64,000 nucleotides of DNA, taken from assembly GCA_026397475.1 (NCBI GenBank), contig JAPLUT010000005.1, positions 1 to 64,000 on the forward strand, read 5' to 3'. Made by a program: the position numbers and the translations under genes. The stretch comes from a candidate division SR1 bacterium (GTDB lineage: Bacteria > Patescibacteriota > Gracilibacteria > Absconditabacterales > Absconditicoccaceae). Shown here piece after piece: positions 7,055-11,322 of the stretch (the stretch's first letter is position 1; every line of letters begins with the position of its first letter). The notes under the pieces were generated by a model. It saw only the letters and a program-made list of their open reading frames with translations. It had not been told where the DNA came from and did not search any database.

Positions 7055-8542
7055 TTAATATTGTATATACTTCGCGGGTTGTCCTTCATAAGGACTGATG
7101 ACTTTGAAAATATCTCCTTTTTGTATTCCTCTATTTTCAAATTCTTGTAACAATCATTTCTGTCCTAGTTGTTTCCAAAATCGCGCTTCTCATTCATCAT
7201 TTCCTCGTGGAAGCATTCGCACCATCTTTGCAAAATCTTCATTATAAATTTCTCGTACACTCACATACTGGGCATCTCATGCCTGAATATAATTTTCATT
7301 TACCAAAACTTCTTTTTCCTGTTCGCTAATATTTTTTATATATTCTTCTTTACGTTGTGTTTTAGGAGTCGGAATATTTTCTATCTGATATACCTCTTGA
7401 ACATCTGTTTTCTTGAGCACATCGACTACCTTTTTCAATCGTTCGTCTACGCCAAAATGTGTCGCTGCGGAGATCGTGAAGGTATACTCTTCGAGAAGTT
7501 TTTTCGTGATTTTAGTTCAGATCTTATTTTTTTTGAAAAAATCTAGAATCTGTTTTCGGAATTGTGCTTTGTATTCTTTGAGAATATCAGCATCGTTTAC
7601 AAGATCATATTTATTGATCAAAAAGAACATTCTTTTTTCGATAACAAGCTTTCCCTCCTCGTAAATAAATAAGGTAATCATACCCTTATCTTCTCTAATT
7701 TGAATCTCAACTGCGTTAGGATCTTTGCTAAATTTGGTACGCGTATAGGTACAAATTTCTTCCAGCAATTCTGGGATCTCTGTAATTCCTTTGTCATATC
7801 TAGAAATATCGCCTATCATACAAAATATTCTCGCTTTGAGAATATGACGAAGAAAAGCATTCCCCAGTCACTTGCCTTCGGCAGCTCACTTGATGAGACC
7901 TGGAATATCTATGACATTGAAATTAGTTTTTTGAACCGTGACTGAACCTAAATTTGGTATCAATGTCGTAAACGGATAGTCCGCGACTTTTGCTTTGGTG
8001 TTTGAAATGCTATTGATAATGCTGGATTTACCGACGCTTGGTGTACCGATCAAGGCCACATCAGCTAATAATTGCAATTCAAGAACAATCTCTTTTTTGT
8101 GCCCCGGTTCTCCCAGCAAACAAAAAGTAGGATACTGATGAACAGCGTCCTTGAAATGGATATTTCCTACTCCTCACTCTCCTCCGTGAACTGCGATATA
8201 TTGTTCTCCGTCTTCGGTGAATGTGTAAAGAATTTCATCAGTTATTTTATCTCTTATGAGCGTCCCTACAGGGACATAAAGAATTAAATCTTCTGCGTTT
8301 GATCCATACTGATCTCTCGATCTTCCGGGTTCTCCGAGATTGGCTTTGAAGGTTGCTCTATATCTGAAACCTTGGAGTGTGTTTTCGTCTTTGAGTGCTT
8401 GTAAGATGACGGATCATCCCTTTCCTCCATTTCCTCCTGAGGGTCATCAAAAAGCCACCCCTGCCTCTCTTCTTCAGGTCACAGTTCCATCGCCTCACTT
8501 TCCAGATTGTACACTTATCGTGACTTCGTCATAAAAACGCAT
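7055..8542 (-). CDS. obgE: GTPase Obg (CgtA)
   Basis: 495 residues. Obg is a ribosome-associated GTPase acting in 50S assembly and stress control. The Gly-rich Obg fold fills residues 1-160 (GGPSGGNGGKGGSV, YGSNAEDL, GEGGVGN), followed by the G domain: G1 GTPSVGKSS, G2 YPFTTLIPN, G3 DIPG, G4 NKYD. A C-terminal extension of about 150 residues follows. Many of the glycines in the Obg fold are TGA. The ATG at 8542 gives the canonical MRFYDEV start. The promoter must lie in the 8543-8633 gap, beside the structured region. Confidence 0.95.
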
Positions 8543-8633
8543 TTTTTTTAATTAAGAATTAAGAATGTAGAATGCAGAATTAAACTATTCTGTGTAATAG
8601 TATTAAAGTAGTACGAAAAAAAAAGAGATAATA
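8543..8633. promoter_or_regulatory. obgE upstream region / end of the retron-like transcript
   Basis: AT-rich. A run of nine As at 8616-8624 reads as T9 on the minus strand and follows a weak TTTCA-AGA-TGAAA hairpin, so it could end the transcript coming from the reverse transcriptase operon. The obgE promoter must also lie here; no clear -35/-10 pair was picked out. Confidence 0.35.
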
Positions 8634-8951
8634 TATTTCATCTTGAAACGACGAAAAATTTTGCTACACTCATCAGCAATGCGGTGGCAATTGTCCATAT
8701 AGTAGCAGAGTCTTTGGTTTGCCAAAGGCGTAGGAGAACGGACTTTCATGTCCAATATCGCTGGTTACTAAAGGTAACTACAGGTGATGTATTCTCCATA
8801 ACTACCTCAAAGAAAGAATGACTATCATCATTTTCCTTTAATGAGGGTTAGACGCCGTTCCACTTCGTCTAACAACAATACCCAGAAAAGAAATAAAATG
8901 GCCGTTGCCGAACGTACACCCTTCAGTTTTTCTGAAGGGTATTGTTGTTAT
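8634..8951 (-). ncRNA. Densely structured non-coding region, candidate retron RNA (msr-msd)
   Basis: No plausible protein frame on either strand, but dense perfect stems. Perfect 14-bp arms lie at 8870-8883 and 8937-8950 (TAACAACAATACCC), with a competing hairpin inside (8918-8926 / 8932-8940, loop TTTTT). Others are TTAGACG 8848-8854 / 8866-8872; a long imperfect stem 8805-8846; GTTAC 8764-8768 / 8774-8778; GGAC 8740-8743 / 8750-8753; CTTTGG 8712-8717 / 8722-8727; TGCTAC 8662-8667 / 8702-8707. It starts 10 nt after the stop of the retron-like reverse transcriptase. Known retrons usually carry their RNA upstream of the RT, so the orientation and role are inference. Confidence 0.55.
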
Positions 8952-8960
8952 AGAAAAAAA

Positions 8961-10475
8961 CTAGAACGGAATATCATCTCAAGATGGCCGCTTTGATCAA
9001 GAAACACCTACTTTTTTTTCTTCCAACAAATCAATTTCCATCTTTCGTGACTGATAATTCTCTCGCTTCTTTTTCGCTTTTTCACAAGCCTCTCTTAGAT
9101 CTCTTGGAATATTGCTCTTACCTGATTCGTCCACTCCGTAAATAGTTGAAATATATCCGTGCGTTCATTTTATAGTATCAATGATAGTAGCTATGCGTTC
9201 CTTCTCGTCCTTTTTTTGACTGAATTTGAATTTGCGAGCATAGTAAGGAGCATTTTTACTCTCCATATCATCTAAAGAGAGATCAATAAGATCTTTTAAT
9301 AATCTCATATACTGACTTCTTTTTTTCTTATCTATACCCCTTTTTCACGTATGGTCAAAAGTCATGCCATTGATTACTCTATCGTCGTTGCCCTGTGGTG
9401 TTCGTATTTTAAATTTTTTGTGATTTATCTTTCGTCATTCGTTTCCTATGATATCGATGATCTCATCACTGACATCTAAGATACGCCAATCCGTATATCT
9501 AATACTTTTTTTATACCCATCTATGATTCCTATATATATACATCTCTCTTCGGGATCCAAAGATGATTGTTGAAGAAATTTCCTTAACTCTTTTATTTGT
9601 TTCTGCAGATAAGTAAGCTCAAAACGATCTGTCAAAATAAATTTTTCTTTTGAAAATTTTTCTATGATATGTTCTATTTCTTCTCGTCATTGCATTTCTT
9701 GTCCTCTGATATCTGCGAGATAGTTCTCCATTTTTTCCTTGAGTACGTCCATCGTAGAAAAATGCGGAAAACTCACCGCGATATCATCTGCGTATCTTGA
9801 GTAGATGATATGCGATCAGGTAAGTTCTGGTAGTTTTTTTTCTATCTTAGCATCAAACTTGCTCATTACAATATTTTGTATCACATTACTTGTACTTGCT
9901 CACTGAGGAAGTTGATCTTCACTCACGCACAAATGAGTAATTGCCCTGACAAAAAGTCGTTTTTCTTCTGGCGTTTGTAAAAGTGGACACCAAATACTTA
10001 GGGGCTTCATAAGCGATCATTCCAAGCATTTGTAGACTCTATTTGTGTTTATCGAAGGATAGGCGTTTTTGATATCTATGGTAATGAGGTAGGGATTGTA
10101 TCTATGAAGATCAGCATTTTTTTGTGGAGAATCTCATATTCTCCCTGCAGTAGAAGCAAAAGAAATAGGAATATAGGATAAACGTGTTTTTATCCCTTCC
10201 TGAATTTTTTTTAGTGACTCCTTGGGAGCGCTTATGAGCCTTTTTTTCTTTCCGACTTGTTTCCAAGACTTTATATACCCATAAACATTTTTCTTGGACT
10301 TTTTTCCATACGGGAGTATAGCATCATCAGTAGGATCTTCATTTCTCATTTTGAGAACATCAATCAATTCTTTTTCCGTGCATGCACAAAAACGAGACAA
10401 ACTACGAAGTACTAGATTGCCTTCTTGAGAGATTTCTTTTATAATATTGTCTGGTAGGATACATCCCTTTTCCAT
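8961..10475 (-). CDS. Retron-like reverse transcriptase with SSB-type C-terminal tail
   Basis: 504 residues. RT landmarks in order: RLISAPKESLKKIQEGI (RT1), the retron X-region motif NADLH (matches NAxxH), ITIDIKNAYPSI (RT3), LPQGASTSNV (RT4), catalytic RYADDIAVSF (RT5), then INHKKF.IRT and RVINGMTF at the place of the retron VTG motif. About 100 residues are inserted between the YADD box and the thumb. The last residues are SKRPSGDDIPF, the acidic tip otherwise typical of bacterial SSB. Retron RTs reverse transcribe a dedicated RNA into msDNA, mostly for phage defence. The ATG at 10475 is chosen over an in-frame TTG at 10490. It follows the 232-residue gene by 23 nt, so the two are probably one operon. 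TGA glycines show the gene is adapted to this host. Confidence 0.85.
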
Positions 10476-10498
10476 ACTTGCGTTCAACAAGATATAAA

Positions 10499-11197
10499 TT
10501 ATCTTTCTTCTAATTCCTTAATTCTTTTTTTAAATTCCTTTATTTTTTCTTCTTTACTTTTTACGCTTTCCAGAATAATTTTTTTCTTATCACTTGGTAA
10601 TTCCATGGCATTTACTGCTTCGATAATATCTTTGTGAGAAAAAACTGTCATATAATACTCTAGTATAGTTAAAGGGTTTCGTAAAGAAGAAATGAGAAGG
10701 GTAGAGACACAATCTTGAATACGTTTTTTTCTTCTTATACTATATTCATTATGCCATTCGTGATCAGGACTTACTACCGTGGAATTTTGGAATGATTTTC
10801 CTCCGTATGATTTCCGATAAAAATCATTGTATTGTTTAAATGTCTTCAATCAATTTTTTTTTAAGTGATAGTAAATCTCCTTATCAAACTTAGATTTAAG
10901 TATACTTCTGACGATATTATTATGCCCGCGAACGTAATGCACATATTCATCATCCATTGTTTGTTCAAGATAGAATATACTGTCTCCCATCTTTTTGAGC
11001 ATGGCAATTTTTAAGTCTTCAGCAACGTTTTTACTTGTGAGAAGCAGGTGAGTAAGTTCTTGAGCTGAATATTTAGTTTGTCGCAGTACGTGAGAAAAAT
11101 TTCATTGTTCAAACTCTTGGATATACGAGTCTTCGCAATGACCATTGTTTATTTTTTCGTCTGCGCTAGCGTCTCAAAAAGCTAAGGTGAGTTGCAT
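10499..11197 (-). CDS. Unknown protein, upstream partner of the retron-like RT
   Basis: 232 residues. I do not recognise the family. It is soluble and mostly helical. The N-terminal part (1-110) includes THLLLTSKNVAEDLK and YVHVRGHNN; residues 160-200 (LRNPLTILEYYMTVFSHKD) look like a packed helix pair; the C-terminus is a Lys/Glu-rich coiled coil ending KEFKKRIKELEER. No catalytic motif is evident. Its position directly before the RT suggests it is the accessory or effector component; it does not look like the Avd protein of diversity-generating retroelements. Glycines include TGA codons. A TTGACT -35-like box lies about 55 nt upstream. Confidence 0.75.
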
Positions 11198-11221
11198 AAG
11201 AAATGATAATTAAATAGTAGC

Positions 11222-11256
11222 ATATAATTAGTATATAAATATGCATTAAAGTCAAG
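11222..11256 (-). promoter_or_regulatory. Likely promoter of the retron-like operon
   Basis: On the minus strand TTGACT (11250-11255) is followed by an AT-rich stretch with TATACTAATTATAT, offering several -10 candidates 14-19 nt downstream. Start about 30 nt before the ATG at 11197. Confidence 0.4.
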
Positions 11257-11290
11257 ATATAGTATTTTGTTTTATCGTTATTGGAGAATA

Positions 11291-11322
11291 TAAAAAAACT
11301 TACCCGGAGAAACCGGGCAAGC
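11291..11322 (-). terminator. Terminator of the PhoH-family gene
   Basis: Minus-strand stem CTTGCCCGG / CCGGGTAAG with a TTTCT loop, followed by seven Ts, 26 nt after the phoH-family stop. It belongs to the same GC-rich type as the terminators at 38.6, 40.8 and 46.6 kb. Confidence 0.85.

What the first reader, a model, noticed from the sequence alone, without database searches (positions are those of the whole stretch)
8634..8951. 320-nt region with at least seven perfect or long stems, no coding frame
Perfect 14-bp arms (8870-8883 / 8937-8950) enclose a competing 9-bp hairpin, followed by a 7-bp hairpin, a long 8805-8846 stem and four more. Such density is not expected for AT-rich spacer DNA. 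It could be a msr-msd RNA, with the 14-bp arms like a1/a2, or a regulatory RNA switching between two folds, because GTTA and CCC are shared by two stems each.
Basis: seen in the sequence. Interest (0 to 1): 0.75.

Follow-up and report, generated by a model that had tools for sequence, protein, structure and literature searches.

The report
Retron-like RNA facing its reverse transcriptase
In a bacterium that reads the stop codon UGA as glycine, a conserved, folded ~270-base RNA with its own promoter lies head-on against the gene of a retron-type reverse transcriptase and travels with it, so it is most likely the enzyme's template, in a gene layout opposite to that of standard retrons.

Summary
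The structured region is real and is an RNA gene. It lies directly behind the stop codon of a retron-type reverse transcriptase (RT; minus strand, TGA=Gly). The RNA is on the plus strand, convergent with the RT. Six loci (window, four relatives, one RT-deleted relic) share a promoter (TTGAAA-N16-TAnnnT; window 8643-8670), a three-way-junction core with strong covariation (25 pairs, 17 with double changes, 98% of cells paired, 0/500 shuffles), a hairpin behind the core, and a terminator abutting the RT stop. A truncated seventh locus keeps the 3' half. The two ends pair (8680-8698/8898-8916) in 5 of 6 loci, like retron a1/a2. A covariance model finds the RNA only in genomes that carry this RT. 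The cassette sits at varied sites, and three same-genus genomes have the site empty. The RT is retron-like (NADLH, YADD; solved retron RTs are its best matches), but VTG reads ING and the RNA is downstream and inverted. Best reading: a retron-like msr-msd RNA in a new layout. The RT C-terminus DDIPF resembles the SSB tail. cDNA synthesis and defence are untested.

The parts
8643..8670 (+). sigma70-like promoter of the ncRNA: TTGAAA (8643-8648), 16-nt spacer, TACACT (8665-8670)
   Evidence: TTGAAA-N16-TA[TC][ACG][GTC]T is found at the same place in 6/6 loci with the 5' end present; it is the only match on either strand of the 64-kb window; 8 matches in 264 kb of strand sequence of 15 loci, 5 of them at the ncRNA
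8677..8950 (+). conserved structured ncRNA (ends inferred: 5' end 7 nt after the -10 hexamer; 3' end after the terminator hairpin and U-rich tail)
   Evidence: folding z -5.5, covariation, model hit 88.9 bits
8680..8698 (+). P1 5' strand (a1-like), pairs with 8898-8916
   Evidence: 16 bp in the minimum-energy fold; equivalent pairing in 5 of 6 loci
8710..8729 (+). hairpin A
   Evidence: covarying helix 1 of A4/A6
8733..8797 (+). stem D (GGAGAA/UUCUCC) enclosing hairpins B and C: three-way junction
   Evidence: helix 2, with compensatory changes in L032 and L086
8740..8753 (+). hairpin B, 6-nt loop UUUCAU (family pattern UUYYRU), stem sequence differs in every member
   Evidence: helix 3: 4 of 5 pairs with changes on both sides
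8755..8790 (+). hairpin C, with G-U pairs that favour the plus strand
   Evidence: helix 4; alignment fold energy plus -26.1, minus -18.7 kcal/mol
8805..8846 (+). hairpin E with inner AAUGA-CUAUCA-UCAUU
8847..8873 (+). hairpin F, stem sequence different in every relative (msd-like candidate)
8898..8916 (+). P1 3' strand (a2-like)
8918..8940 (+). terminator hairpin H, U-rich tail to about 8950, 10-11 nt before the RT stop codon complement
   Evidence: only terminator-like site in 8500-11300; a hairpin at this place in all relatives examined
   Evidence: present in L029 and L030, absent in L031, L032, L033 and L086
8937..8950 (+). right arm of the 14-bp repeat (overlaps the terminator 3' strand and tail)
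8961..10475 (-). retron-type reverse transcriptase, 504 aa (TGA=Gly), NADLH and YADD motifs, C-terminal DDIPF
10499..11197 (-). partner protein, 232 aa, all-helical model, unknown function

Best explanation
The region encodes a ~270-nt structured RNA on the plus strand, with its own promoter and terminator, convergent with the retron-type RT. Shown by comparison: promoter, structure, strand, and co-inheritance with the RT as a cassette. Inferred: the RNA is the RT's cognate retron-like RNA. Its paired ends (P1) act like a1/a2, the conserved hairpin A and the D/B/C junction with the UUYYRU loop act as the msr that the RT binds, and the variable hairpins E and F next to P1 act as the msd that is copied into a small single-stranded DNA. 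The RT, RNA and cDNA, in most loci with the helical partner protein, would then form a defence-type complex. The RT's SSB-like C-terminal tail may dock it on proteins that bind SSB.
For: Covariation: 25 pairs, 17 with changes on both sides, 98% of cells paired, 0/500 shuffles, and sliding the partners destroys it. Plus strand favoured by alignment energy and z-score. Promoter in 6/6 loci. End pairing in 5/6 loci. The model finds the RNA in five of the six genomes with this RT, the sixth being a cut-off contig, and in none of the other 282 genomes of the class. Three same-genus genomes have obg next to phoH without RT or RNA, and the cassette sits at other sites elsewhere. RT: all best PDB profile matches are retron RTs, E 8e-20 to 1e-11, against 1e-4 for DRT1; NCBIfam and PADLOC agree; NAxxH motif.
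Against: No transcript or cDNA data. The RNA lies downstream of and opposite to the RT, unlike described retrons (PMC6868368). L031 lacks P1. VTG is replaced by ING. There is no recognisable conserved AGC/branch G. No Rfam match. The partner is not universal (absent next to the RT in L030) and unidentified. An RNA copy survives in L086 without an RT core. Few sequences: six plus a fragment.
Confidence: 0.62

Rival explanations
1. The RNA belongs to the RT but is not a retron template-primer: it works as in DRT systems (RNA scaffold or short repeated template, protein-primed), or only as a structural or regulatory cofactor.
For: DRT9 and DRT10 RTs also use neighbouring structured ncRNAs (PMC12483538, PMC12632851). 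There is no clear branch G, and L031 lacks P1. The RT is longer (about 500 aa) than most retron RTs and has an insertion after YADD.
Against: Sequence profiles put the RT with retrons, not DRTs. The a1/a2-like end pairing is present in 5/6 loci.
Confidence: 0.25
2. The structure is a cis-acting element on the minus strand: the RT 3' UTR or the leader of obg.
For: On the minus strand it lies between RT and obg, and the minus strand also folds better than shuffles.
Against: Relatives at other sites have no obg behind it, and obg in G162, G165 and G169 lacks it. Promoter and terminator are on the plus strand. The alignment fold is worse on the minus strand.
Confidence: 0.06
3. The plus-strand RNA is an antisense or attenuating regulator of the RT gene (convergent transcription control).
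For: It is convergent with the RT and its terminator abuts the RT stop.
Against: It does not overlap the RT coding sequence, and a ~270-nt covarying multi-helix core is not needed for transcription interference. It is retained in L086 where the RT core is deleted.
Confidence: 0.05

Closest known systems
Retrons (RT plus msr-msd ncRNA plus effector), types II-A, III-A, XI, XII by RT similarity
   Same: RT profile, YADD, NAxxH, structured RNA with paired ends, conserved msr-like hairpins followed by sequence-variable hairpins, patchy distribution, partner gene in most loci
   Different: ncRNA downstream of and convergent with the RT with its own promoter and terminator; VTG replaced by ING; no identified effector; about 500-aa RT with an insertion and an SSB-like C-terminus; UGA=Gly host
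DRT9/DRT10 (protein-primed RTs with neighbouring ncRNA)
   Same: RT with an adjacent covarying ncRNA
   Different: the RT is much closer to retrons by profile; the ncRNA of DRT9 lies upstream of the RT and that of DRT10 upstream of the SLATT gene (PMC12483538, PMC12632851)
Retron-Eco8 (solved with SSB, PDB 9p4k)
   Same: distant RT match and a link to SSB in a retron
   Different: here an SSB-like tail is part of the RT itself; no ATPase/nuclease effector was found

Membership tests
retron | RT groups with retron RTs | tested here: met
   best PDB profile matches are retron RTs, E 8e-20 to 1e-11, DRT1 1e-4; PADLOC retron models E 1e-35; NCBIfam St85 RT 125 bits, below its curated cut-off of 235. 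No tree was built.
retron | NAxxH in region X and YADD | tested here: met
   NADLH and YADD in the window; relatives NAEMH, NTEMH, GAEQH, NAELH, NTEIH: two have A to T and one N to G; L032 has YVDD
retron | VTG at the start of region Y | tested here: inconclusive
   the aligned position reads ING in five of six members and INK in L033; ITG or VTG in three of the four distant RTs; PMC6868368 reports variants among verified retrons
retron | msr-msd upstream of the RT in the same cassette | tested here: not met
   the RNA is downstream and on the opposite strand with its own promoter
retron | complementary a1/a2 ends | tested here: met
   P1 in 5 of 6 loci, not in L031
retron | priming from the 2'-OH of a conserved G, and msDNA | not testable with these tools
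   needs nucleic acid analysis; no obvious conserved branch G
retron | associated effector | tested here: inconclusive
   partner family in five of six close loci, divergent in L033 and absent next to the RT in L030; no known domain or fold
Rfam RNA families | match to a curated model | tested here: not met
   no match at gathering score; only chance-level hits below it
diversity-generating retroelement | template/variable repeat pair near the RT and DGR-type RT | tested here: inconclusive
   no second copy of the region in the genome by DNA search; LPQGAS motif and retron profile of the RT; DGR repeats were not searched for specifically

The most novel reading that the evidence does not exclude
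A retron-like class of recoded Absconditabacteria in which the RT uses a separately promoted, convergently encoded ncRNA as template-primer and, through an SSB-mimicking C-terminal tail, is placed on SSB-binding partners so that its cDNA monitors or intervenes in replication.
Probability: 0.3. Interest if true: 0.8.

Novelty: new variant of a known kind. Interest (0 to 1): 0.62.

Why it matters
Retron searches look upstream of the RT on the same strand; this family would be missed. It suggests that retron-like RTs can work with an RNA expressed in trans from its own promoter, extends RT-ncRNA systems to ultra-small bacteria with UGA read as glycine, and offers a testable link between a retron-type RT and SSB-binding proteins.

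Tried and rejected
Rfam at gathering and permissive thresholds: nothing. Single-sequence scans of genome and viral contigs with the RT: nothing; with the alignment the same relatives came back plus distant RTs. Plasmid tblastn: only distant retron RTs. Partner protein: no family or fold match. Model search in 380 genomes of the phylum: only the window's own genome. The 14-bp arms as a1/a2: rejected as the conserved end pairing. obg-leader idea: rejected by empty sites and varied neighbours. The RT structure model was weak (pLDDT 66, pTM 0.35), so its fold matches to retrons are only supportive. Literature searches for an inverted or downstream retron ncRNA found none, but the library is partial.

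Full report
Setting. The window comes from a bacterium that reads TGA as glycine: under table 25 long ORFs such as obg, the RT and pnp become intact, and named relatives are Absconditabacteria/SR1 MAGs. The finding lies between obg (7055-8542, minus) and an RT (8961-10475, minus); upstream of the RT is a 232-aa partner (10499-11197, minus), then phoH.

Observation. The stems named with coordinates are present, and the region folds well beyond shuffles on both strands, better on plus (z -6.5 against -4.9).

Relatives. Searching 288 genomes of the class with the RT gave five close relatives (44-60% identity) and several distant RTs. Each close relative has a structured stretch directly behind the RT stop codon; in L033 the contig ends 121 nt after the stop and only the 3' half is seen. 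Neighbouring genes differ between loci, and three same-genus genomes (G162, G165, G169) have obg directly next to phoH with no RT, partner or RNA. The unit is therefore a cassette of RT plus RNA, usually with the partner. L030 has no partner next to the RT: only about 213 nt lie before phoH, and the contig's single run of N lies inside phoH. In L033 the partner is divergent. G189 has a partner at a contig end, so its RT cannot be judged.

Strand and promoter. On the strand opposite to the RT every complete locus has TTGAAA, 16 nt, TAnnnT just before the structure (window TACACT, L029 TATCTT, L030 TATATT, L031 TATATT, L032 TATAGT, L086 TATATT). In the window this pattern occurs once on both strands; in 264 kb of strand sequence from 15 loci it occurs 8 times, 5 of them here. 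The loci share ancestry, so these are not independent draws, but the spacers are not conserved. The structure ends in a terminator-like hairpin next to the RT stop. The RNA therefore runs plus, convergent with the RT, without overlapping its coding sequence.

Structure. The minimum-energy fold of 8677-8950 is a P1 stem closing a multiloop with hairpin A, stem D holding hairpins B and C, hairpin E and hairpin F, then terminator H (pair probabilities P1 0.91, D 1.00, B 1.00, E 0.97, F 0.98, H 0.98). On a MAFFT alignment not fitted to the structure, RNAalifold finds A, B, C and D with 25 pairs. With five sequences 97.5% of cells pair and 16 pairs change on both sides; with six 98.0% and 17 pairs; 0/500 shuffles reach any measure, and sliding the partners drops pairing to 39-57%. 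These helices were derived from five of the same sequences, but the sixth (L086) was found later by the model and fits. Plus-strand alignment energy is -26.1, minus -18.7 kcal/mol, because G-U pairs in helix C become A-C on the other strand. Hairpin B keeps a 6-nt UUYYRU loop while its stem changes in every member. E, F and H are hairpins of different sequence in every locus (elements picked by eye from the folds). P1 is strongest in L032 and L086 (13 bp each, with changes on both sides between them), present in the window, L029 and L030 (L030 not significant against shuffles, 0.096), and absent in L031, whose RNA seems to start at hairpin A.

Distribution. The 89-position model R1 finds the RNA in five of the six genomes with the RT and in none of the other 282 genomes of the class (the sixth is the cut-off contig), and only in the window's own genome among 380 genomes of the phylum (stricter filters, so weak copies could be missed). 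It found a second copy in G134 (E 1e-8): there the RT core is deleted, the partner N-terminus is joined to an RT-like C-terminus ending KWDDDLPF, and promoter, RNA and terminator remain. The flanking genes match those of L032, so it is a decayed orthologous cassette.

The RT. It has YADD, LPQGAS and NADLH (NAxxH). The profile's best solved relatives are retron RTs, as are the PADLOC and NCBIfam matches. The VTG position reads ING in five of the six and INK in L033, and ITG or VTG in three of the four distant RTs. The C-terminus is DDIPF, DDDLPFL, DDISF, DDLPF, DELPF, NDIPF in the six members with synonymous codon changes; the host SSB ends DDDEDVPF. This resembles the SSB-Ct motif, which recruits replication and repair proteins (general knowledge); the consequence here is inference.

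The 14-bp arms. They occur in the window, L029 and L030 only and show no variation. Forcing them costs 2.6 kcal/mol against the best fold and excludes P1 and part of H. They may be a genus-specific alternative 3' end structure; they are not the conserved closing stem.

Mechanism. Paired ends, msr-like conserved hairpins followed by variable hairpins, and a retron-type RT point to a retron-like template-primer RNA. Described retrons place msr-msd upstream of the RT (PMC6868368), so by that criterion this is not a standard retron. It works most likely like one, encoded in reverse. In the distant RT clade (L034, L035) promoter-like sites and a conserved block lie upstream of the RT in sense orientation, twice in L035, which would fit the inverted layout being derived; this was not tested further.

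Noticed in passing
window 8961-8990 (RT C-terminus); L053 1495-1905 (host SSB): RT ends in DD[I/L]PF-like tails conserved at the peptide level, resembling the C-terminal tail of the host SSB (DDDEDVPF).
   Followed up: partly
L035 (G217 contig 44), 420 and about 900 nt upstream of the RT; L034 about 375 nt upstream: Distant RT clade has a promoter-like site plus a conserved ~110-nt block upstream in sense orientation, duplicated in tandem in L035: candidate canonical retron RNAs.
   Followed up: partly
L086 4480-5554 (G134 contig 1): Relic cassette: intact promoter, RNA and terminator, RT core deleted, partner N-terminus fused in frame to an RT-like C-terminal tail.
   Followed up: yes
L053 53-520: Long run of about 15-nt tandem repeats (IKQDL / GLDPV in opposite frames) near ssb.
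   Followed up: no
L032 6207-7745 and L086 3193-4402: Neighbour gene with antitoxin-like look (about 257 aa) and a 91-aa gene next to the cassette in both orthologous loci.
   Followed up: no
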